Of a stretch of 64,000 nt of DNA, positions 46,595 to 64,000 are shown piece by piece (position 1 is the stretch's first letter; each line of letters begins with the position of its first letter). The translations under genes were made by a program, and so were the position numbers. This DNA comes from Zingiber officinale (Eukaryota > Streptophyta > Magnoliopsida > Zingiberales > Zingiberaceae): contig NC_056000.1 of the NCBI RefSeq assembly GCF_018446385.1, positions 50,128,722 to 50,192,721 of the forward strand. The letters run 5' to 3'. The notes beneath the pieces were generated by a model, which saw only the letters and a list, made by a program, of their open reading frames with translations, was not told where the DNA came from and searched no databases.

Positions 46595-46852
46595 TCGCAA
46601 GCCTTTGGAAGGAAGAAGATTGGATTGAGGAGTGAGAAATCGGTGGAACCGAACTTCGAAAGCTACCGTCGAGAACGATATGACGGGAAAAAAAACATTG
46701 ACGGATAAAAAAAAAATTAAAATTAAAATGGCCAAATTATGTATTGAAAAAATATCATTTTTTTCACTTTTTTTATAAAAAAATTAAAAACATTTATATT
46801 TTTATTAACTATTAAATATTTTTTAAAACAAATATTCCAAACAAAACAAAAG
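46595..46852. other. 5' flank of the renalase-like gene
   Basis: Promoter region of the minus-strand gene, A/T-rich, squeezed between its start codon and a Tourist-like element. No motif was assigned. Confidence 0.4.
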
Positions 46853-47067
46853 GATGGAGTTTGGTTTAGAGGTTTGGGAATGAAGGAATGTATTTATTCC
46901 TAAACTTTATTTTTAATTGATGGAAATAGAATCAAGATTTTAGAATAAAATCCAAAAATTTGGGTATAGATGAAACTCATTCCTTCCCTTGGGTTTTGAT
47001 AGAATGGAAATGAGAATTAAGTTTTGGACGAAAATATCCTTAATATATTTGTTCAATTTTTCTTTCA

Positions 47068-47815
47068 TTTCACTCTCTCTCTCCTTATTTCTCTCATCAT
47101 ACTTTCTTTCTCCTTATTTTATCATCACACTTTCTCTTTCAACATATTTTCTCTCTCCTCATTCACACTCGTCGCACATTCTCTACTATTTTCTTTCTGT
47201 ATTCTCTCTCATCACACACTCTCTCTAATTATTTTCTCTCTATTCATTCTCTCATCATTTTTTCATCATACTTTCTCTCTCATCATACTTTCTCTCTTCT
47301 CAATCTCTCTTACCATACTCTCTCTTTATATTTTCTCTCATCACACTTCTCTCTCTTCATTCTCTTCCATCACACTCTCTCTCCTCATTTTCTCTCATCA
47401 CACTTTCCCTCTCTTCATTTTTTCCCATCACACTTTCTCTCTCATCATACTTTCTCTCCTCAATCTCTCATTTTCTCTCATCACACTTTCTCTCTCTTCA
47501 TTTTTTTCTCATCACACTTTCTCTCTCATCATATTTTCTTATCATACTTTCTCTCCTCAATCTCTCATTTTCTCTTATCATACTTTCTCTCTCTTTATTT
47601 TTTCCTATCACTCTTTCTCTCTCAGCACACTTTCTCTCTCATCATACTTTTTCTCTTCTCAATCTCTCCTATTAGGCTCTCTCTCCTTATTTTCTTTCAT
47701 CACACATTCTCTCTTTATTTTCCCCATCACACTTTCTCTCTCATCACACTTTCTCTCTCATCATATGTTTCTCTCACATTCAACTTTCTCTTCCATCTAA
47801 TTTTTTCTCTTATTT
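47068..47815. repeat. Pyrimidine-rich minisatellite (CTCTCATCACACTTT-type units)
   Basis: About 750 bp made almost only of T, C and A on the + strand, built from words such as CTCTCATCACACTTTCTCTC and CTCCTCAATCTCTCATTTTC, with a higher-order period near 100 bp. It generates long meaningless open frames. It is the core of Tourist-like copy 1. Confidence 0.9.
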
Positions 47816-47972
47816 TCCTCTAAGGGTAAAAAAGGAAATTTAAGTTTATTCCGATTGAAAATATTCAACTAACCAAATATTATTTTTAAGAATGATATCC
47901 AAGCTCATACTCATTCTCATTCCACAATACTATGATACTTATTCCCATTCCGATTCCTAGGAGAGAACCAAA

Positions 47973-48439
47973 TTGGGATGTAAATGAACCAAACGGTTCG
48001 CGAGTTATTCAGAGCTCGATTCGATAAAAAGCTCGTTTGAGTTCGTTCGTTTATCTTATCGAGCCGAGCTCGAGCTTAAGGATATTCGGCTCGTGAGCTC
48101 GCGAACATGTTCGTTTGTAGGCTCACGAGCCTTAAAATGAACCTTAAATCGAGCAAAAAAAACGAGCTCTAAAACGAAGCAAAAAACGAGTTCTAAAACG
48201 AACCTTAAAACAAGCTTTAAAACGAGCCAAAAAAAACAAGTTCTAAAATGAGCCCGAAAACGAGCCCAAGCTCGCTTAAGGAATTAGGTTATTCCTTAAG
48301 CGAGCTTGATAATTCCAAAACGAGCCGAACTCGAGCCTTGTAATAAAAGTTCGATTTAAGCTCAAACCCGAATATAACTTAAACGAGCCAAGCTCGAGCC
48401 TAATACTGTTCAGCTTAGTTTGACTCATTTACATCCCTA
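47973..48439. mobile_element. hAT MITE nested in Tourist-like copy 1
   Basis: Ends TTGGGATGTAAATGA and TCATTTACATCCCTA form an inverted repeat. The 8-bp target duplication GAACCAAA is intact at 47965-47972 and 48440-48447. The 467-bp interior is built from GAGCTCG/CGAGCC words and has no coding capacity. The target is the sub-terminal GAACCAAA of the host element, so this insertion is younger. Confidence 0.88.
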
Positions 48440-48902: not shown

Positions 48903-51900
48903 TCAGTCCAGGGATAGCTTGGCTAGAGTGAGAGCTAATACTTTAACTCCATTTGCAATGTCCTCAATTGATGCATACTCTTCAGGCTTATGGCTGTAAC
49001 CTGCAATACCGGCATCAAGGAGGATTAGATCCAAATCAAAGATCCAATGATGCATTAATCCAAGAACAAAGTTGAAAATAAGTTCATTTGAGGTTAGGCA
49101 TCAACACAATCGTAGAGGAAAATCAAGACGATCAACAATTTTAAAAAGAAGATGATCACGAGAAGGGAAAGAAACAAGGAATTTTATTTTTTTTCCCCCT
49201 TTAGTTAACCGATTTTAACTGGTTTGATAGGAGTAGAAAGGGTAGAGAGGAATAAAGGCAACTTTTGAGCTGTTATTACATCGACTTCACGATCATACTA
49301 GGAATCATCTTTTCCATTGCAATAGGGAACAATAGATATCAAAGAACAAGCTGTGTTTAATAGAGCAAACCTTTGTAGCAAGGAATGAATATCATGCCCA
49401 TTGGAGATACTCTGCATTTATCATAGTAGCAAACTGTTAGCATATGCCATGTGTAATACTCTAAAGCAACAGAATAAGAGAAAATACATGTACCTGGCCA
49501 TGAAGAGTGAGTCATGGTAAGCTCTACTGATCATCAACCTATGACTCAGGTTCAAATGTTGCGATGCAGCTTTCATTGCATTGATTATCGATCCATCACA
49601 AAGAGCAGGTGGATCTTGATTAACAATTTCGAACTGTGACAATTCAACTCCACGCTCCTTTGCAATCCTAGTAGCAGATTGTTGAATTTTCTCAATCACA
49701 ATGTTCCTTCTCTCCATGTCGATGTCTCGTGTGTCTGTAAGAATGTTGAGAAATTAGTTTTAAAGGACGTAACAAAGCTAGACATGCTCATCATACGTAA
49801 TCTCAACTGTAAATAATTCCATGAACTGATTTCTCACCTATTTTACTTGTAATCCTATCTTCAATTGACAGCTTAAACATAGCATTGCCAAAAGAAGGTA
49901 GGATTTACTAGTAAAATGGGGTTATAATTATAGGCTTACCTTTTTGTGAGTTAATGACTTCTTAACTATTTTTCACTAACTACTGTGTGTTTGAATGTCC
50001 AACAAAGACACAATGGTAAGAAGATAAGAATGTAGCAAATACAAATCAGATGGTACAATAGCCTTCTGTCATTCTGTGAAAATGAAACTGAAATTTTGTA
50101 CTTCAAGTTTCAAAAATGAAATAGCATGCAAACATAAGGGACTTTTTATTTGTGGTGTCCTCGAATATGAAACTCTTTTTCCTTACAGGGCATTCCAAAG
50201 TTTCTTCTCCTTCACATGACGCCTAGTAGGTCCCCCTGGTCTGACATTGAATTGAGGACATGACCACAACACATTGAGTCATCGATCTCCAAGTTGCTTC
50301 ATGATTGAGCCGACACCAATGTTTCTCCCTTGCCAGGCTTTAGAATGTTAAGGACTTAGACCACCTTTAATTGCAAGGAGGTGCCTTATTTATTGTCACC
50401 ATTTAAAATTTGAGCTGTCAAACATCTCCAATTGGATGAGCTCTCCTATATCCTTAATTGTCAAAAGAATCATCTGCGCAGAGCAAAAAATTAATCCTCA
50501 AGATTGTCGTAGAAATTATTTATGGCCGCTGGATTAAAATGATTACTTGTTGGTTTCACGTGTAATCTCTTTCCTTTAAGATTAATTTGTCACCATCAAT
50601 GGTGTCTACCAGGATCCAAAAAATTTATAAGATCGTCTGCTCCTCTGTAACTTGCACTACTGAGGAAGAACCCACAGTCCACCCAACTTGGAAACAAGTT
50701 GCTGGAATTCAATCACTGAAGTGCGCAAATCCAGTGGTAGAAGCTTTGTATGCACTGAGGGAGAAGTTTACTGCTTTAAATGGAAAAGGGAAATTACTTA
50801 AATTCGATGTGAGTTTGACCAATCCACTTGAGTTCTTATATAGACTAGTCCCCACCCTTTGGTTGTGTTTCTTGGGCTGCACATTTTCAAGTTTAGCCCA
50901 AATCATTGGATAGCTTGAACAATCGAAATTGAACCAGTTTAAAGCACATATGAGTATGGCCCAAATTTGTCATGAGTGAAATACATATCTCCACTAAGTC
51001 CACCTTTTAGCAAAGCATAACTTTATGCATGAATCTATATTTAAATATCTCGATCTCACTCCAAATTTAAATGTGGACCTAAAGTTCTTTGTGAGTTCCA
51101 GGAGCTTTCCTGTTCTTCATTTCTGTGTTTGAAAACCTTCTAGAAAACAATGCTTATTTTAAAAATTCAACAGAAAACTAGGTCAAGTTCCAACAAATAA
51201 TCAGCTGTTTTCTAGCAAAGCATTTTAAGCAATTAAAAAGCCTAGTGAGCCGGCATCAGTTCATGAAGGCATCTGGTCGTTGCCAGTTCCAGTAAATTTC
51301 TAGTGCAAGACAATAATAGTGAATTGAAAGCTAATCTAAAAAAAAAAATCAGTGTATGCTAAGCTAGTGATATCATGCTAGCCCTAGAAATTAACAAGTT
51401 TTCAAAGATTCTATTTTATAAGTAATCTTTCCAAGCGTCTCACAAGAGTGGCATACCAATCTCCAAATGTGATTTACTTGGAATGCTATTGATAGCTCCT
51501 GGATGAACCTCCAGAATTCCTAGAAGAAATTCAAAGTTTGTGATGTCAGAACGTCATATATCAGATAACATGATGATGATAAACACTGGAGGAATGGTAA
51601 ATGAATAAGGCCAAAGGCTTATACCTACGGTACCAACAGTGTCAATGGATCCAGATTCAATCACATGTTTTTCAACCGCCAGCGCTAACTCTGCTGCTGC
51701 CAATCCTGCATCATTTCTGTTAAATAATTGCAATTATAGTTATTGTAACCATATAATTAAAGTTTGAAATAATAAAAAAAATAAATTTAAGGGAAACAAC
51801 ATGAAATATTTTTCATCCAAAAATAACATATGCCCATTTTTAGCAAGAAATTAATCAACATAGGCTGGATCTTATCAACAAAGAGTTCCCCATATAAGCA

Positions 51901-53919
51901 AAAGTCCTTTGGTCTAGTGGTAAACAAATTAGATCCAGAGGACTTTTTTGCTAGAGGTCGGACTTGCAAATCCGCACAACAACTATTGAGAGGGGTTTTA
52001 CTTGTCACCCCTTGCTCTAAACGAGAAATTGTTACATCCAAGATGGTACGGGGACACCTCATCAAGGATCAAAATCATAAGAGCTTTCCATATAGTAGAA
52101 GATAAAATGGGTTTTCATTGAAAAGTAATGAAATAACAGATACAGCTTTGTAAGATTGGAAAAGGGAATTGAGGACGTAAAGGAAAAAAAGGCAAAACCA
52201 AATTGAAGGTAACTTATCTGCAAAGACAGTTTATATTTGTGAATGAACACGAAATAAGGAGACAACCATGCAGATTAAAATCAAACTAGAGTACAAGGCT
52301 TCGCCAAATCCTGACAGTGAAAAGTATGAAAGGAGAAGATAACATGGAACAATCATCCCTCCTAAAATATGGATGCCATCAATGCATTCCCAAGAAATCA
52401 GGGCATGCATATCATAAAATATTTAATGCTCAACTCTAGTGATGAGACCATGAGAAAAAAAAAGCAAGACAGTCCCATGACTATGGATTATGATGACTGG
52501 CTAAAAGTCACAAATTCCAGCGGCATGCATCCATAACAACTCAAAGTTAAATAAAATGCTTTATTATACGTTATCACTCAATAAAGGAAGTTAGTTATAA
52601 CATATTGTTGTTATAGTTATTACCAGCTAAATGTTGCCACTGGGAAAACATAGCATCCAACTGGATGAAGCGGGAGAAACAAAATGCTTTCTTCAGCAGA
52701 TGAAGTCCTAAAGTGAAGAGATTAATAAATGAACTACTTAAGGACACAATATAGGCATGGTTATGACTGAATAACAAAAGGCATATCATGATGAATTTGG
52801 CAAAATGTATAGTCTTCCCAGAAAAATTGAGAAAATGTATTGTCTTCCCTGATTTAGGTTACGCCATATGATAAAAGCATTAAACCTGTATCAAAATATT
52901 TTAATGCTTGGCTTAGTTCCTCTTTATCAGTTAGTCATGGATGAAATTCTTTGACAAATTAGTAACTAGATTTAAGTACAAGAAATATCATATTGTCAAC
53001 TGGTATCACACAACAGAATTATCAAAGTTATACCACGAGTACAGAAAGCAATTCGAGTATCTGCATTAGACAAACCTTGCAGGCATTAGGACGGCTCCAG
53101 CATGACCTCCATTTCCTTCAAAGTCTACTTTAATGCTTGCAGGGGCAGCAATTGCAGTAACAATGCCAATGGAAACACCTGCAACATTGAGAAATCATTT
53201 AACTGACCTCATCAGATCATGTGTAGCAAACTTGTCAAGTGCACAACCTTCTTCCTCCAGAATTGGCCCTTGCTCAATATGCAATTCCACAAAAGAAGAA
53301 TAGCTAGTTTTTGTCAAAAACATATTTGGTAAATCTTCTTGGCGTACATCATAGCCAGCACCTCTTGCAGCATCAAAGAAGGGAATATTTTGGCTATCAA
53401 CTACCTTATTAAGTGCATTTGCAAGTGGATGGATCCCTGCCAATAAGCGGCTGCAAGTTTGAAAGAAAAATATGAGATGAAGCTACTAAGGTTCAACATG
53501 CTCAAATTCATAGCTCAACATATGCATGCAGGTCAAAGAAGGAAAAGAAGAATAGCTATGTCACGAACTCAGAGGAATCTAGATGCTATTTCTAACTCCA
53601 ATAAAGATGAAGTATACTAATATAGACCTTCCTAAGCAGCTGATTCCAAACCGTGTAGGTTCCTCAGAAGTAAACATGATAACCTCCAGAGATTTCCTCG
53701 GTTGGAAGCCAATTCTGCAAACAAAATCATCAAAGCAGAGTAAGCACAGAAACGAGCATTCTAGAACACTACAGCCTGGCACTTTTGCACCTTTTCAAGA
53801 TTCGTATTGCCTCTAGTGCACCCAATACACCAACTACCCCATCATATTTTCCAGAATATGGAATTGCATCTATGTGAGAACCAGTAGCAACTGCTCCAAC
53901 ACCTGAATCAGAGCCATTC
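48903..53919 (-). CDS. UAH: Ureidoglycolate amidohydrolase, C-terminal nine exons
   Basis: Minus-strand exons: 53919-53791, 53714-53628, 53450-53248, 53178-53076, 51716-51625, 51519-51457, 49734-49494, 49411-49371, 49000-48903. Together 1057 nt, about 352 residues, all phases consistent. The enzyme releases ammonia from ureidoglycolate in the last step of ureide (purine nitrogen) breakdown in the ER. Visible M20-type metal and active-site blocks are ATGSHIDAIPYSGKYDG, FTSEEPTRFGISCLG, VELHIEQGP, FEGNGGHAGAVLMP, VNQDPPAL and SRAYHDSLFMA. The C-terminus ends AKLSLD as in Arabidopsis UAH (about 476 residues), which distinguishes it from allantoate amidohydrolase. The first visible exon starts on the last base of a codon, so about 125 N-terminal residues, including any signal peptide, are encoded upstream. 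No such exon appears between 53920 and 64000. Confidence 0.92.
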
Positions 53920-55392
53920 CTGTGAAATTGGATCGTTCGTCATGATCAGTAAACAATTTACATTCAGGTTTTAGATTGAAGATCAAGCATGAATATACAT
54001 CTACCAGCATTTTTAATCCTTGAACTAGTTAGGAACAGTCATTAAACCGCAAAAGGAAGTTTTCTCAAGGTATGCCAGAATTAATACACAATCTGATATA
54101 TAATTGTCAACCATATCACACAAGTCAGCCCAAACAAATATCTGGCACATATGAATTTGGAATTTGCTTGTTAGCTTGGATAGTTAATTGAATGACTTCA
54201 GAGCCTTAAAAGTCTTATGTGTGATCTAGCCTTGCTTTTGGGACCAGATACAAATTGTAGATACAGCAAACTTAAATATATTACGATTGCAAATCCTACA
54301 TGTTAAACATAGATACAAGACGGGGAGGGAAACAAATGTAAATAAAAAACAAAGAAAACAAGTAAACTAGCATTATCAAATATATATATATATATATATA
54401 CCAAAATGAAAAGGAAGTTATGAAGGAGATAGAAGAGGAACAAGATCATCATCAAAACTACTAAGTTCATGTAGAACAAATTGTTGGTGCAATGATGATC
54501 CCACGTGGGAGTAGGCTATTTTGATATATTTGCCATTGGATTTAAGTTAAATTTATTATGTATTTTTGATATGTGCATCAAGTGTGCGAGGAAATGGCAA
54601 AGTGCACATTAAGCTCTCGAAGCGTGTTGAGTCGATGGGGTAGAGCCGGTTTGATGTGATTGTGAGATCGTTTATGTTTAATGACTTAGAAATTCGTAAT
54701 GGCGTGAACTAGGAGGCAAGGCAAAGAATGGCACTGAGCGACCTCTAGGAGCTTGGTGAATCTGAGAGAGAGATTGGAGGCCTATCAAGGTGAATCTAAG
54801 ACAAGGAGCAGGAGTGGCCCATAATGGGGTGAACTTGGAGGCCAAGTGAGGGATGACACGGAGCGAGTTTGAAAAGGGACGAAAGATATGATAATGTGAA
54901 CTCTAGGGTGGCCTGTAACAAAGTGAATTTGAAGGTAAAGAGGTGAAGGATAGCAAAGAGAAAGCTCATGGAGCTTGGTGCATCAGAGGAATTGAAGACC
55001 TCTAGCAAGGTGAAATATAAGGCGAGAAGCATCGAGACCATTAAAGACATGGACCATGGGAGGCTACATAAGGGGACATGTAATGTTAGGCGTACGATTT
55101 TGTATACTATTATATTTCCACTACATATTCTTGACACAAATAATACATGAGTACACATGCAATTAACATCGATTTGTTTGTGTTTGTGCAAGGAATTTCA
55201 ATTTGGGTGAACCTGCTATTAACCCCCTGTAGTCTAGCAATAAATAACTATCCTATCAATGACCAAAATCAACCTGTTTCCATGATTTTTCATCCCAAAA
55301 TAACGTGAACTCAATGTATGTCCCTAAACTAAAGCAATAAACATGCGAGCCATTACAGAAAAGAGTTTTAAAATTTAATCACCTTAGCTAGG
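53920..55392 (-). other. UAH upstream intron, repeat-rich
   Basis: The acceptor tttcacag at 53920-53927 shows this is an intron. It contains a TA microsatellite (about 54380-54400) and an LTR-like block (54482-55239). No further UAH exon was found. Confidence 0.55.
54482..55239. repeat. LTR-like or other dispersed repeat
   Basis: The block starts TGTTGGTGCAATGATG and contains several similar phrases (GGTGAACTTGGAGGCC, GAGCTTGGTG) about 100-140 bp apart. It ends near TCTAGCA at 55239. The TG...CA form suggests a solo LTR, but no convincing 5-bp duplication flanks it. No coding content. Confidence 0.35.
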
Positions 55393-58271
55393 ACATTAAG
55401 AACTCCGCTCATGACGACCGGTCATGGCCGGTCCCAAGCCCGGATAAAGGAGGAGGGTTGCTTAGGTTGCCACCATCGTTAAAATTATAGCAATATTCAA
55501 TGAATAGATCTATTAAACTATTGTGTTAACGCTAGGTTATTTCCCGAAAGGAAAGCATTGTAGGGTCCAACTATAACATCTCGACAAGGACCGCTACATC
55601 TCCAGAACTTGGATGAAGTGCTAAATATGTAAGAGTTCACGTTATAGGGTCCAACTGTAACGTATCAGCAAGGACCGCTACATTTCCATGAGAACTTGGG
55701 TGTAGTGTTAAATAGGCAAAACTTCTCACACCATAGGTTGGATAAGAACAAATATGATAGTAAAACTAATAATCTAATATTTGGAACATGAAACATAGAA
55801 ACTCTCACTAATAAATCAGCGGAGATAGTAGATACGATGATTAGAAGGAGAATTAGTATTTTGTGTGTACAAGAGACAAAAAGGGTAGGCGAGAAGACAA
55901 AGATGATAGAGAACTCGGGTTATAAGTTATGGTACACTGGAAAGTGTAAAACAAGAAATGGAGTGGATATTATTATAGATAGTTCGTTAAAGGATGAAGT
56001 TGTAGAAGTAGTTAGAAAAGAGGATAGAATTATAACTCTTAAGATAATAGTGGTGAAAGAAACTATGCACATAATTAGCATATATGCACCGTAAGTAGGA
56101 TTAGATGAAGCTACCAAATCAAGATTTTGGGACGACTTAGATGAAATATTACAAAATATTCTATTAAATGAAATGATTTTAATAGGAGGTGATCTAAATA
56201 GGCATGTCAGAGTGAAAAAAGAGAAATATGAGAAGGTGCATGGGAGTTATAGGTTTAGAACGAGAAATGAGGAAGGGAAAATTATATTAGATTTTGCGAT
56301 AGCATATGACCTTATATTAGCTAATACGTTTTTTAAGAAAAAAGAAGAACACTTAGTCCCGTTCAAAAGTGAGAATAATAAATCGCAAATTGACTTTCTT
56401 ATGGTTAGGAAGAATAATAGAAAAATTTATAAAGATTGTAAAGTCATCCTTGCAGAAAGTTTAACTACCCAACGTACGCTAGTAGTGTTGGATATACGTC
56501 TCAAATTAATAGAAAGAAAATATAGACGACTCATAGAATTAAGTGGTGGAAGTTAAAAGATGGAAAGCAAAATATATTTAAGGAGAAGGTGGTGTGAGAT
56601 TGAGACATGCTAGAGGGGTGAATAACACTCGTGGCTTTTTCAGTTTTTAGAAAACACAGAATAACGTAGTAGAAATAAAAAGCAAGACAAAGAACAAGTA
56701 CACCAAAGATTTACTTAGTTCGGAGCATGTGACGACTTATACTCCAAGACTTACGATCGTTGATCATTTTCGTTCGGCAATTACTATAGTTTCAGAAAAT
56801 TTTTACAAATAGAGAATTACAAGTGTAGAACGTAATTACAATAATTTAAAATTATATCCTATGTTGTAAGAGGCGCGAGGTGCACCGAGGCGCAAAGGGG
56901 CTACTAGAGCCCGAGGCGCGCGCCTCTAGAACATGAGGTTGATGACTACTAAACTATTGACACACTCATATAATATGTTAAATATGATAACTATTAATAT
57001 TCCACACACATCAATATCAAATATGACCAGCAAAGCAACACCATGATAAAATTAATAAAAGTTTCAAACTTTCAAGTTTCAACTAACAAAGTTCATCAAA
57101 ACAAGCGTAATAAGTCAAATTAATCATCAAGCTCAAGATCATCCTCATTGTATTCTTCTTCTTCTTTATCTTCATCTTCTTCAAATTCAATTTCTTCTTC
57201 TTCTTCTTCTTCATCTCTAAGTCTTAGAGATGAGTGTCTCATAGAGGAAGATGTATTTCCCTTCTCAACTTGTTTACGCATAGCATGTGAACTAGAGGTC
57301 ATGGATGCAATATTTTTTCCTCCTAGTACAATATCCAGGCTCTTCAACTCCACTAGCCCTAGCAACGACATCCCATGTCAAGTCATAACCTTCAAAAACC
57401 AACTCATCTTCTTCATTATCACTTTCTCCATCCATTCTACCCATCAACCATTCATTACAATCATCAATATCTGTCAAAGAGATAGGGTCAATCTTATCAC
57501 GTGCATCATACCGAAGTTTAAAGGCACGATTATATTTCACAAATATCAAATCATTTAAGCGCTGCTGAGCTAGCCTATTCCTTTTTTTTTACTGTAAATC
57601 TACAAAATGTCAAAAATCACAATAAATATAATAAAATAGCAAAGAATATTTTCTACTTATAAAAGTAACATACTAATAATATTAAACATTTATATTTATT
57701 ACATACCTGCTCAAATACACTCCAATTGTGCTCACAACCAGAAGCACTACAAGTGAAGCTAAGCACTTTAATAGCAAACTTTTGCAATTTTGGGGTATTT
57801 GCTCCATAGCATTCCCACCATTCTGTTGTAGATAATGTTCTTCTATGTCTAATTGTCACATTCCTCCCAAATAGCCCTTCTGCCTTTCGATATATAGAGA
57901 GTTGGGTAGTGATTTTATCTTGCTCGGCAGCGCTTGAAACCAATCTCTCCATAGTTTCAAACAAACCATTCACCACTTCTCCACAGATATTTGAATCTGT
58001 GTATGAATAAAAATATTCTAGATTCAAATAATGTCCTGCAGCATGCAGAGGCCGATGAAGTTGACATTCTCATCTCGCATCAATGATCTCAAACACTTCT
58101 TTGTATTTCTCTTCTTTCTCCATAAAGGCCTTCATAATTATTTCTTTTACCCTATCCATAGCCTCATAAATATAACCCATTGCAGGTTTTCTTTCGCCAT
58201 CAACCAATCTCAGAACATAGACTAAAGGGTCATATATCTTTAAAATATGCACAATACTGCTCAAAATCTAA

Positions 58272-59531
58272 GGGGGCGTTTGGTTCTCTCCTAGGAATCG
58301 GAATGGGAATGGGTATGAGCTTGGGTATCATTCTTAAAAATGATGTTTAGTTAGTTAAATATTTTCAATCGGAATGAACCTAAATTTCCTTTTTTACCCT
58401 TACAGGAAAATAAGAGAAAAAATTAAATGGGAGAGAAATTTGAATGTGAGAGAAATATATTATGAGAGAAAATGATGAGAGAGAAAGTGTGTTGGGAAAA
58501 AATGAAGAGAGATAAAGTATGATCAGAGAAAATGATGAGAGAGTGCATGATAGGAAAGATTGAGAAGAGAAAAGGCATTATGAGAGAGAAAGTGTGATGA
58601 GAGAGAAAGAGTGATGAAAAAAATGAAGAGAGAGAAATTATTATGAGAGAAAATGAAAGAGTGAGGAGAGAGAAAGTGGGTTGAGAGAGAAAGAGTGATA
58701 AGAAAAAATGAAGAGAGAGAAAGTATGATGAGAGAAAATGAGAGACTGAGGAGAGAGAAAGTATGCTGAGAGAGAAAGAGCGATGAAAAAAATGAAGAGA
58801 GAGAAAGTATTATGAGAGAAAATGAAAATATGAGGAGAGAGAAAGTATGATGAGATAGAAAGTGGGTTGAGAGAGAAAGAATGATGAGGAAAAAATGAAG
58901 AGAGAGAAAGTGTGATGAAAGAAAATGCGAGACTGGGAAGAGAGAAAATATGATGAGAGAGAAAGTGTGCTGAGAGAAAAAGTGTGATTAGAGAAAATAA
59001 AGAGAGAATGTGTGATGAGAGAGAATAAAGAGAGAGAAAATGAGGAGAGAGAATATGCTAAGAGAGATTGAGGAGAGAGAAAGTATGATGAGAGAAAAAG
59101 TACGATGAGAGAGAAAATATGCTGAAAAAATAAGTAGAAAGTGTGTAATGGGAGAGAAAGTGTGATAGAAGAGAATGAAGAGAGAGAAAATAAGGAGAGA
59201 GAGTGTATGATGAGAGAGAATATATAGAGAAAATAAGGAGAGAAAAAGTATCTTGAGAGAAAAAATGTGATGATAAAATAAGGAGAGAGAAAATATGATG
59301 AGAGAGAGTGTGTGAAATTTAAAAAAAATGAACAAATATACTAAGGGTATTTTTGTCTAAAACTTAATTTACATTCCTATTCCATCAAAACCCAAGGGAG
59401 GGGGTGGGTTTCATCCATACCCAAATTTTTGGATTTCATTCCAAAATCTTGATTCCATTCCCATTAACCAAACACAAGGTTTGGGAATGAATCCATTCCC
59501 TCATTCCCAAACCCATAAACCAAACGTCACC
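58272..59531 (+). mobile_element. Tourist-like (PIF/Harbinger) element with long purine tract, copy 2
   Basis: Ends GGGGGCGTTTGGTT (left) and AACCAAACGTCACC (right) form an inverted repeat flanked by TAA on both sides (58269-58271, 59532-59534), the PIF/Harbinger target site. Sub-terminal blocks include CTCTCCTAGGAATCGGAATG on the left and ATTCCCAAACCCATAAACC on the right. The centre (58425-59325) is a G/A-rich minisatellite, the reverse complement of the tract in copy 1. No transposase. It lies inside the hAT transposase gene. Confidence 0.88.
58425..59325. repeat. Purine-rich minisatellite (GAGAGAAAGTGTGATGA-type units)
   Basis: About 900 bp made almost only of A, G and T on the + strand, with units like AAATGAAGAGAGAGAAAGT in irregular order. 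Counterpart of 47068-47815. Open frames here on the minus strand are artefacts. Confidence 0.9.
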
Positions 59532-62500
59532 TAAGTGTCATGATGATTTTAGCTACCTTCTTCCCCGCCGCTTCTTTTGCCCATTTACTCTCTGTCCAAT
59601 CCTTTGAAATGAACATTTTTCTTAAATTTTGCTTCTGTAGGTTCATTCTTTCAAGAGTGAGAAAAGCAGTAGCAAATCTTGTGACACCCGCCCGACAAAG
59701 CTCTTTTTATCTTGTGAATTGCCTCAGCATATTTACCATGCCGGGGCGAACATAAATGTAAGCATTCACACTCATTGCCTTCTTCAATGTTGCTTTAAAA
59801 TCAGGCAATTTTCCAATATCTTCTAAAGATCAAGTCGACACAGTGAGCAGCACAAGGAGTCCAATACAAATGTGGTATTTTTGCTTCTAATAATTTTCCT
59901 ACAAAAGAAGTTAGAAAAGTAGATAAGTTTAACATATATAAGAAAAAACATATTGATAAGAAAGAATTAAATAGATTATTACCAGCAAGCACATTATTAC
60001 TTGCACTATCCGTAACAACTTGAACATCATTTACTTCTCCTACACACTCCACAAATCGATCAAACAACTGAAATAATTTCTCTCCAGTCTTTGCATAATC
60101 AGGAGCATCAACCGATTCGATGAAAACTGAACCTTTAGAAGAATTCACTAAAAAATTAATCAATGTTCTCTGCCTTTTGTCTATCCATCCATCTGCCATC
60201 AAACTACAACCATACTTTGCCCATTCTGTTTCACATGACTTAATGTAGTCATTTGTCACACTATCAACAACCTTTTATAGAAAAAGAACCTGCATCTCAT
60301 GATAACTAGGCCCTTTTAGACATATACCATATTGGCCAACCAAGTCCAACATTCTTTTGAAGCTTGAATAATTAACGGCATTAAAAGGAATTACCGCATC
60401 ATACATCCACTCAGTTATGACCATACAAGTTTTTTCCCTCAATTCTTTCTTGTATACCTCATTTATCGTAGTTTGTCTTTCTTTACCCTTTCTACTTTCA
60501 ACATTTTTTTTTACATTAGGAGCAAAATACGTATCCATTGGACCTATTTGTCTGGGCCTTTTTTGCATATTCATTGATCTAGAACTTGTACTTGTACTTA
60601 TAAGCGGCACAACTTTAGCTCCAATATTATCCATATCAATATCATCACCAAGAGAGTCTACATCCTCAAAGTCCAATGTCGTAAGTTTAGAAAGATTACT
60701 TTTCTCCGTCTTTTTCTCCATGAAATTTTTAATTTCTTCACGTACATGAGACGGACATTTTTTGCAAGTCATTTTGAAACCCCCCAACAAGATACTGTTT
60801 TGCACGATAGATACCCCCTTTTGTAACTTTTTGACAAAAGTTATAAATTAAATCATTTTTATTATCCGGATTAACTCTTTGAAAATAATTCCATCCCGGA
60901 TCTTTTGATATATATGTTGGAGTATCACTACTACCTTCCATATAATTGAACAAGAAAATAATCTGAAAAATTAAAAATAAAATAAAATCAATATGGTACC
61001 AGCAATAAAAAAGCACTGTACCAGCAATAGCAAAATAGTAAAAAAAACAAAAAGCAAAACAAGACAAACAAAAATGAAAAAACAGTAAAAAAAAAATGAA
61101 AGCAACACCAATACGAACCAATAAAAATGGAAAAACAACACCAAAAAATCCAAAACCGGACAGCAGTAGGAAGCAAAAACACAACCTGCAAAAATTAAAA
61201 AACAGGAAACCAAAACAAAACAAAACCGGACAACAGCACAGCAAGAACACGAACCGGACAGCAGCACAGCAAAGAAAAGAAGATACAGAACTGCAGAAAA
61301 AAAGAAGATACAGAAAAGAAAGAAGAAAAAGAAGCGAAGAGAAGAAGCGTAGAGAAGAAGAGAAGAAGAAGATGATAACAAACAAAACAGAAGAAGTGAA
61401 GAACAGAAAAAACAGAAAAAAGAAGGAAAACATACTTGGGCGATGACGCTCAGCGATGGCGCGACTATGGCGGTGGCGGACGGAAATGGGTTCAGGTTTC
61501 TTCCTCCCTTCCTGCGTTCTCTTCCTCCCTTCCTTCCTGCGTTCTTTTCTGCTCCTGTTTCCCGTGCCCTAATTCCAAACAACGTTGATTTGGAATGTTT
61601 TTTTTTGGTTTAAAATCCAGATTTGTTCACGATCGATCGTGGCACCTCGATCGCGCCTCGATCGTGCCTTCGTTGAGGTGCAAAGGCGCACGAGACGCGC
61701 CTAGGCGCGCACCTGGCGAACAGCGCCAGCCTCGCGTGGGAAGAGGTGTTTTTCCCAACGCCTTGTGCGCCTAGCGCCTCGGGCGTGCCTTTAACAACAC
61801 AGATTATATCGACAATGTGGAATTCTGAAAATAGAGCTTTTAGTTGTCGGAGCAGTGTTACGACTTCGTTGGATCATCTTTGGAGCAATGCACAGGAGAA
61901 AAATCGTGAAGATGAGTTGTGTTCTTGCATCTGCTCGAACTAGCCTTTTATGGACTACTAAAGGCGCTTTCAACCCCATGGAAGGCGTGAAACTTATCTC
62001 CACAGCTTCGGTCTCGATAATTTCCACTTTCTGCGAAGTTTATCCCTTCGAAGGCGCCTTCAAGCTCATGGAAGGCGCCTTCCATCCAATCTCCAATGTG
62101 CCTTCAAACGCTTCAAAGGCGCCTCTGTGCCACTTCCGCGCGGGCCTTCGGCCAAGCCACCCGAGGCGCCTTCGACAGCCTCGGAGGAGCCTTGGACACT
62201 GTTCATCGGAGCATTTTGTGTGCTTTTCACTCCCTGCAAGATACATTAGTTCAAAATACCAACATACCCTGCAACACAAAGTTAGTACGATAAAATATGA
62301 TTAATAGAACTGTTTAACAATCTTCGGACTGTCCGGTTCTGACTTTCGGATTTCCCAAAAATTCTAGGTCGAACCGACCCCTACTGTTCCCTCAACGAGG
62401 AACGTGTCGTCACCTATTCCTCTCAGGAGAGTTTACCTTTTGTCAGATCAGTCGTCTGGACTTTTATTCAGTGTCAGAGACGTTAGGACTTCATATTGAA

Positions 62501-64000
62501 CGTCTGATCTCGACCCGTCCAGTCTTCCACCCGATGTCCGCGACCCCTAAGATTTTCACCTAGTGTCCTCGACACTAAGATTTCGCCCAACGTCCTCGAC
62601 CCGCCAAGGCTTTTCCCAGTACCCCGAACCATACCTAACTACAGTTAGGACCCACCTGCCTAGAATCCACTAGGACTTTTGTTTAAGATAATTTAGGACT
62701 TTCCTGCAAGCTCAGTCACATTTATTAGACAATAAGACAACTTAACTTTGAACTCTTTGCCCTTATCAAAACACAAGTTTGATTGTTTGGTGCTCCCTAG
62801 ACCAACAGGTAGAAGTACAAGCATTAGGTGAAATATACGATAACTCTAATACAACATGGGATAAGATGGTATCAAAGTTAAATAGTAGCTAAGAGTATAC
62901 TCGATGAGTCAAAGGGGCATGCACTATTAAGTAAGGAATATTGGCAGTAGAATGAGAAAGTACAAGAGAAAGTGAAAGAAAAACGAATAGCTTATAAGGA
63001 ATTATATATTTGTAAGAAAAAAGAAAACTTAAAAAAATATACAATAGCCAAGAAAGAAACTAAGAAAGTAGTGAATAAAGCAAAGAATGAAACTTTTGAA
63101 TGATTATATAAAAAATTGGATATAAAAGGAGAAAGAAACATTTATAAAATAACTAAAGTGAAAGAAAGAAAAATAAGTGATCTTATCCAAATAAAATATA
63201 TTAAAGATGAATGTAATAGAGTATTAGTAAACGATAGAGAAATAAAAGAATGATGGAAGAGGTACTTTCATCAACTTTTTAATAAAGGTTTGGGTGACCA
63301 ACTTAACTTAGGTAATTTAAGTAGGTCAAATGAGTATAGAAATTTCAATTTTTATCATAGAATTCAAACTTTAGAAGTAGAATAAATTTTAAATGGGATG
63401 GACAATGGAAAAGTTGTTAGAGCATATGATATTCTGATAAAGGTATGGAAGTGCCTAGGAAACAAGGCATTGAATGGCTTATAAAATTATTTAATATGAT
63501 ATTGAAAATAAAAAAAAATGTCTGATCAATGGAGGATAAGTACTCTAGTTCCCTTATATAAGAACAAGGAGACGTACAAAATTATACAAACTATAGGAGT
63601 ATTAAATTAATGAGTCATACCATGAAACTTTGGAAAAAAATAATAGAAAAAATTAAGGAAGGAGACCAAAGTGACCACAGATCAATTTAGGTTCATGCCT
63701 GGAAGGTCGATAATAGAAGTTATGCATCTTCTTAGACAGTTAATTGAAAAATATCAGGATAAAAACAAGATCTACACATGTTGTTCATTGACTTAGAAAA
63801 AAGCTTATGATAGAGTGCCAAGAGAAATTATATGGAGAATTATAGAAAAGAGAGGTGTTAGTGTAACATATATTGAACTAATTAAGGATATGTACGAGGA
63901 TGTAACAACCAGAGTAAAGACTTCAGGTGGAGTAATTGAAGCATTTCCAATAAAGATAGGGTTATATCGAGGATTAGCTCTAAGTCCCTATCTTTTTACA

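What the first reader, a model, noticed from the sequence alone, without database searches (positions are those of the whole stretch)
55393..64000. Four-layer transposon nest with every layer datable by its target duplication
An RTE LINE is split by a solo LTR (GGTGG/GGTAG), which is split by a hAT transposon (ATTATATC on both sides), which is split by a Tourist-like element (TAA on both sides). The order of events is unambiguous: LINE, LTR element and its recombination to a solo LTR, hAT, then Tourist. Having four different mechanisms stacked in 9 kb makes this a good internal clock for repeat turnover. It also lies in or next to the apparent giant intron of UAH.
Basis: partly seen in the sequence, partly recalled or inferred. 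Interest (0 to 1): 0.75.

Follow-up and report, generated by a model that had tools for sequence, protein, structure and literature searches.

The report
Nested transposons in a ginger intron
Four mobile elements sit one inside another in an intron of what appears to be a ginger gene; the plant's other chromosome copy carries the two older ones but not the two younger ones, which confirms most of the order of arrival, and it is an ordinary, cleanly documented case of a well-known pattern.

Summary
An RTE-type LINE (window 55401 to 64830-equivalent) is split by a solo LTR, the LTR by a hAT element, the hAT by a Tourist-like element. The homologous locus on C16 carries LINE + solo LTR but no hAT or Tourist: one uninterrupted ATTATATC marks the empty site. 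Of other family copies, 18 of 18 LINE loci fetched run through the LTR site, and 39 of 39 non-self hAT matches in each of two capped searches stop at the Tourist's borders. The LINE has its own 13-bp duplication, partly outside the window. Corrections: target duplications order events but do not date them; nesting cannot tell whether the Tourist entered the hAT before or after it landed; family divergence does not follow nesting (the LTR is out of order). The alleles give a better clock: LINE+LTR differ by 7.9% between haplotypes against 2.2% in the same intron, and the hAT has 1.7% private changes against 4.1% in the LINE since the split. Ordinary kind, well resolved.

The parts
55387..55399 (.). 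5' target-site duplication of the LINE, GCTAGGACATTAA (3' copy GCTAGAACATGAA at window-equivalent 64831-64843)
55401..56592 (+). RTE-type LINE, 5' part with endonuclease region (includes LTR target copy GGTGG 56588-56592)
   Evidence: Pfam Exo_endo_phos_2 E 3.8e-4, below its cut-off; family copies
62808..64000 (+). RTE-type LINE, 3' part with reverse transcriptase region (includes LTR target copy GGTAG 62808-62812); continues beyond the window to 64830-equivalent, TTG-rich tail
   Evidence: Pfam RVT_1 E 2.6e-4, below its cut-off; 18 of 18 loci contiguous across the site; 3' end
56593..56858 (-). Solo LTR, first part (3' end of the LTR in its own sense), including one copy of the hAT target 56851-56858
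61811..62807 (-). Solo LTR, second part, ending CA at 62807
   Evidence: 29 of 38 non-self, non-allelic matches end at 62805-62810; primer-site-like and polypurine-like sequence beside LTR pairs elsewhere
56859..61802 (-). hAT transposon with imperfect terminal repeats CTATGTTGT.. / CTGTGTTGT.., DUF659 and hAT dimerisation domains; flanked by ATTATATC at 56851-56858 and 61803-61810
   Evidence: absent from C16
58272..59531 (.). Tourist-like element, terminal repeats GGGGGCGTTTGGTT / GGTGACGTTTGGTT, purine-rich repeat interior, TSD TAA 58269-58271 and 59532-59534; lies between the reading frames with the DUF659 and dimerisation domains
48906..53918 (-). Downstream exons of UAH; the next upstream exon is at window-equivalent 65868-65942, so the whole nest is intronic

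Best explanation
Four successive transposition events in one intron of the ginger UAH gene. An RTE-type LINE inserted (13-bp duplication). An LTR retrotransposon then inserted into the LINE at GGTAG and was reduced to a solo LTR by recombination between its two LTRs. Both events preceded the coalescence of the two haplotypes in this plant. After the haplotypes parted, a hAT element landed in the LTR on the C15 haplotype only (8-bp duplication). A Tourist-like element (TAA duplication) sits in that hAT copy, between its transposase domains. Shown: the elements, the junctions, the allelic empty site, and that no other copy of the searched junctions was found. Inferred: that the hAT was never on C16 rather than precisely excised from it, and that the excess of C-to-T change reflects methylated TE cytosines.
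For: Collinear C16 allele, with only two full-length hits to the left flank (best 40 of 1,564 scored). C16 reads straight through one ATTATATC without a footprint. C16 has GGTAG on the left and AGTAG on the right, C15 GGTGG on the left and GGTAG on the right, so the original 5-bp duplication was perfect, with one later change on each haplotype; the target reads GGTAG in 8 of 9 LINE copies read. 18 of 18 LINE loci cross the LTR site. 39 of 39 non-self hAT matches lack the Tourist in each of two searches; of the 7 non-self hAT loci first fetched, 6 show the closed site and one does not hold it. hAT private changes 49 of 2,888 sites (1.70%) against 93 of 2,274 (4.09%) on the C15 branch of the LINE since the split; Fisher p 3e-7, independent support for arrival after the split.
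Against: Precise excision of the hAT from C16 cannot be fully excluded. Substitution rates of hAT and LINE need not be equal; transversions alone (17 of 2,888 against 19 of 2,274) do not separate them clearly. Tourist private changes (2 of 232 sites) are too few to order it against the hAT's landing. The LINE's Pfam matches are below the curated cut-offs and 2 of 4 LINE pieces gave none.
Confidence: 0.95

Rival explanations
1. The hAT was present before the haplotypes parted and was lost from C16 by excision.
For: hAT elements excise (general knowledge); the outcome can look like an empty site.
Against: No footprint on C16. The hAT's private changes are about 0.4 of those accumulated in the host LINE since the split (49 observed, 118 expected at the LINE rate).
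Confidence: 0.04
2. The Tourist was already inside the hAT when it landed here, so hAT and Tourist arrived in one event.
For: hAT elements move by cut and paste, so a donor copy would vanish; the private-change counts do not separate the events.
Against: The Tourist separates the transposase's domains, so movement would probably need a transposase supplied by another copy (whether it lies in an exon or an intron of the transposase gene was not tested); no second copy with this junction was found.
Confidence: 0.25
3. The block spread as one composite repeat.
For: None found.
Against: 30-mers across four of six junctions occur only here, apart from the C16 allele for LINE/LTR and three look-alikes without hAT sequence.
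Confidence: 0.005
4. C16 is a paralogous duplicate, not the homologous haplotype.
For: The TE part differs by about 8%, and the block is inverted between the two contigs.
Against: Only two full-length hits to the left flank; two UAH exon pieces checked are 98.7% and 100% identical and flanks are about 98%. The assembly paper reports 281 inversions between haplotypes (passage).
Confidence: 0.03

Closest known systems
Nested transposable elements of large plant genomes (maize and wheat type)
   Same: Successive insertion of different TE classes into one another, ordered by junctions and target duplications (general knowledge; one wheat-3B TE paper and one maize-region paper seen as search listings only)
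   Different: Here the sister haplotype of the same plant gives the empty site and a rate calibration
RTE-clade LINE
   Same: About 3.2 kb without its inserts (from the coordinates), endonuclease and reverse transcriptase regions, TTG-rich tail, target duplication
   Different: Broken by stops and by the LTR; clade label not tested with a clade-specific model
Solo LTR of a plant LTR retrotransposon with a tRNA-Met-type primer site
   Same: TG..CA ends, 5-bp duplication, relatives in pairs with primer-site-like and polypurine-like sequence
   Different: Superfamily not determined: 18 of 34 ORFs from a 4.4-kb internal piece of one relative, including all 10 on its sense strand, gave no retroelement domain
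DUF659-type hAT transposon
   Same: 8-bp duplication, DUF659 and hAT dimerisation domains, CAGTGTT-type left ends in relatives
   Different: Interrupted by the Tourist-like element; its own left end reads CTATGTTG
Tourist-like MITE (PIF/Harbinger)
   Same: Terminal repeats with GTTTGGTT, TAA/TTA duplication
   Different: 1.26 kb with a purine-rich repeat interior, longer than usual MITEs (recalled)

Membership tests
RTE LINE | Endonuclease and reverse transcriptase domains | tested here: inconclusive
   2 of 4 LINE pieces matched: Exo_endo_phos_2 (E 3.8e-4) and RVT_1 (E 2.6e-4), both below the curated cut-offs; clade label recalled, no RTE-specific model run
RTE LINE | Shared 5' end among copies, simple-repeat 3' tail, target duplication | tested here: met
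   5' end shared by 18 of 18 loci examined; these were picked from 26 held, the other 8 having matches that begin further in; TTG-rich tail and 13-bp duplication
Solo LTR | TG..CA ends with 5-bp target duplication and no internal region | tested here: met
   on C16 the last bases are also ACA
Solo LTR | Same sequence occurs as paired LTRs with primer site and polypurine tract | tested here: met
   Two candidate pairs fetched: C19, 5.1 kb apart (83.4% LTR to LTR, alignment stopping short of the LTR end) and C10, 10.5 kb apart (84.6%); TGGTATCAGAG on the minus strand at C19, degenerate at C10; purine-rich tract at C10. The tRNA label is recalled; target duplications of these two were not checked.
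Copia or Gypsy | Order of pol domains | tested here: inconclusive
   No retroelement domain in 18 of 34 ORFs tested from one internal piece (all 10 on the sense strand); one sub-threshold InsA match, E 0.0046, taken as chance
hAT | 8-bp duplication | tested here: met
   ATTATATC on both sides, once on C16
hAT | hAT transposase | tested here: met
   2 of 6 pieces matched: DUF659 E 2e-40 and Dimer_Tnp_hAT E 4.7e-8, both above cut-off
hAT | Short terminal inverted repeats | tested here: met
   Imperfect repeats here; of 19 relatives' left ends, CAGTGTT in 12 (one shifted), near variants in 4, not seen at the aligned place in 3
Tourist-like / PIF-Harbinger MITE | Terminal repeats and 3-bp TWA duplication | tested here: met
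   TAA here; of three relatives read, TTA twice in L070, TAA twice in L072; L071 shows TCA on the right and its left end was not found
Tourist-like / PIF-Harbinger MITE | Mobilised by a PIF transposase with matching ends | not tested
   No autonomous partner was sought

The most novel reading that the evidence does not exclude
Because both haplotypes carry the same LINE + solo LTR in one intron and only one carries the hAT, the locus is a self-calibrated clock. Since one and the same split, TE DNA has changed 3.6 times as much as intron DNA a few hundred bases away (339 of 4,292 against 53 of 2,432 sites), chiefly by transitions, with the polarised LINE changes mostly C to T. The excess falls off within about 100 bp of the LINE's edges. 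The hAT then arrived no earlier than about 0.4 of the way back to the split.
Probability: 0.75. Interest if true: 0.35.

Novelty: new member of a known kind. Interest (0 to 1): 0.25.

Why it matters
Nested insertions are routine in large plant genomes. What this one adds is a checked order with an allelic empty site in the same plant, and a direct local measurement that TE DNA in an intron diverges 3.6 times as much as the intron around it. That warns against reading ages from TE divergence with one rate: at the 1.3e-8 per site per year used for ginger LTRs (PMC8342452, passage), the same haplotype split would be about 3.1 million years from the LINE branch (4.09%) and about 0.8 million from the intron (half of 2.18%).

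Tried and rejected
Composite repeat: rejected by the junction searches. Two look-alikes of the hAT/Tourist left junction (C21, C188) and one of the right (C1) were fetched: the first two match neither element, the third is a Tourist in other DNA. Ectopic gene conversion as the cause of TE-specific divergence: not favoured, because derived changes are split nearly evenly between haplotypes (93 and 81 of 2,274) and are mostly C to T (57 of 93 and 49 of 81). 'Younger layers closer to family' as a test of order: fails for the LTR. LTR superfamily: not resolved. Paper searches with narrow term sets gave nothing, or one maize TRIM paper and four listings, none opened; led to the ginger assembly paper, of which passages and section 6 were read.
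Full report
What is there. I read the region and searched the window's own genome. The window is C15:50128722-50192721 of a 3.09-Gb assembly. Contig lengths C2 194,392,478, C15 141,269,392 and C22 88,687,397 equal, to the digits given, the longest pseudochromosome (194.39 Mb), the scaffold N50 (141.27 Mb) and the shortest pseudochromosome (88.69 Mb) of the phased diploid ginger assembly (PMC8342452; passages and section 6 read). So the plant is very likely Zingiber officinale and both haplotypes are held; the naming is an inference from lengths.

The allele. The left flank 54800-55500 has two full-length matches, here and on C16 (90% over the query, gaps counted, best 40 of 1,564 candidates scored, the other 38 covering only the last 100 or so bases, which are LINE). 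Over C15 37516-69182 the C16 block is collinear on the other strand, apart from the hAT and a 690-bp extra piece on C16. C15 56858 pairs with C16 index 19915 and C15 61803 with 19908: an 8-base overlap, the hAT target. C16 reads AATTTAAAATTATATCGACAAC without interruption. C16 therefore carries the LINE and the solo LTR but neither the hAT nor the Tourist.

The LTR in the LINE. All 18 other LINE loci fetched (L011-L028, from the best 40 of 8,482 candidates) align across the joined LINE flanks (17 over 401 and one over 400 of 401 query bases). The target reads GGTAG in 8 of 9 copies read and GATAG in the ninth; the other 9 were not read because that script did not turn them. LTR identity: 29 of 38 non-self, non-allelic matches end at 62805-62810, and relatives occur as pairs on C19 and C10, with a tRNA-Met-like primer site on the minus strand and, at C10, a purine tract (motif names recalled). 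LTR-to-LTR identity in those pairs is 83.4% (alignment stopping short of the LTR end) and 84.6%. From a 4.4-kb internal piece of the C10 element 18 of 34 ORFs of 70 aa or more were scanned, including all 10 on the sense strand: no retroelement domain. The superfamily is open and the family may be non-autonomous.

The hAT and the Tourist. Of six hAT pieces scanned, two match: DUF659 (E 2e-40) and the hAT dimerisation domain (E 4.7e-8), on the minus strand. In one search, 39 of 39 non-self matches stop at or before the Tourist's left border, 39 of 39 begin at its right border; both lists are capped at the best 40. Of the seven non-self hAT loci first fetched, six show the closed site and one (L002) does not hold it. 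The Tourist lies between the reading frames with the two transposase domains; whether in an exon or an intron was not tested. Of three longer Tourist relatives read, L070 has TTA and L072 TAA duplications; L071 shows TCA on the right and no left end.

The LINE itself. It starts near 55401; 18 of 18 loci examined share that start, but these were picked from 26 held, the other 8 having matches that begin further in. It ends at window-equivalent 64830 with a TTG-rich tail, flanked by GCTAGGACATTAA and GCTAGAACATGAA; on C16 the second copy is GCTAGAACATTAA. The finding's end at 64000 is only the window's end.

Junction uniqueness. 30-mers with up to 3 mismatches: LINE/LTR left hits C15 and C16 only; LTR/hAT left hits C15 only; hAT/Tourist left hits C15 and two places without either element; Tourist/hAT right hits C15 and one Tourist in other DNA. 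No sign that the block is a repeated unit.

The gene. A recalled Arabidopsis UAH fragment finds minus-strand exons at 48906-53918 and at window-equivalent 65868-65942 and 67279-67380; one exon matches PDB ureidoglycolate hydrolase 4pxe/4pxb at E 1e-29. The nest lies in the intron between 65868 and 53918, about 11.9 kb on C15 and about 7.0 kb on C16. Effects on expression were not testable.

Clock. Between haplotypes the intron outside the LINE differs at 53 of 2,432 sites (2.18%) and LINE+LTR at 339 of 4,292 (7.90%), Fisher p 7e-25; transitions to transversions 34:19 against 271:68, p 0.013. In 500-bp bins the long plateau of about 7-11% coincides with LINE+LTR; most other bins lie at 0.4-3.6%, but not all: 4.4% at 44.0 kb, 5.9% at 68.5 kb, 19% (176 sites) at the ragged end near 69.1 kb, and 3.5-9.2% over 46.5-48.5 kb, which holds another Tourist-like copy shared by both alleles. 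The 100-bp bins just outside the LINE have 7 of 100 and 5 of 98 differences, too few to claim spreading. Polarised with family copies, the LINE has 93 changes on C15, 81 on C16 and 114 shared, over 2,274 sites; C to T makes 57 of 93 and 49 of 81 (16 and 17 of 18 copies used). The shared class includes subfamily differences, so it overstates time before the split. The hAT has 49 private changes in 2,888 sites of 56859-58271 and 59535-61020, an upper bound for change since landing; 118 would be expected at the LINE's rate since the split. The Tourist has 2 private changes in 232 sites against 17 relatives.

Against the reading. Divergence from family does not follow nesting order: best non-allelic identities are about 90% for the LINE, 82-87% for the LTR, 97% for the hAT and 97% for the Tourist's end. 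Rates may differ between elements; contigs are unnamed; no reads were available to test the assembly; precise excision from C16 is unlikely but not excluded.

Verdict. It is a well-resolved member of a familiar class. I make no claim that this locus is unreported beyond the searches listed.

Noticed in passing
window 46690-46698; C16:39950051-39950741: C16 carries about 690 bp absent from C15, with a 9-base overlap at the break like a target duplication: a likely haplotype-specific insertion on C16.
   Followed up: no
C15 window-equivalent 69182-81553 (beyond the window): About 12.4 kb on C15 has no counterpart at the C16 break point: a second large C15-only segment next to UAH.
   Followed up: no
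window about 46700-48000: A second, inverted Tourist-like copy with a similar purine-rich repeat interior, shared by both haplotypes and also divergent between them.
   Followed up: partly
window-equivalent 64654 (C16 allele): C16 has an extra 154 bp near the LINE's 3' end that looks like a tandem duplication of LINE sequence.
   Followed up: no
C19:98422255-98428750, C20:95813695-95818350: LTR pairs of the same family with only some 3.7-3.8 kb between them, suggesting short non-autonomous members (the C20 pair is seen only as search hits).
   Followed up: partly
window 58272-59531: The Tourist-like element is largely a purine-rich repeat array; two relatives are 87-89% identical over most of its length though the 232-bp end is 97% identical, so the array probably changes fastest.
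   Followed up: partly
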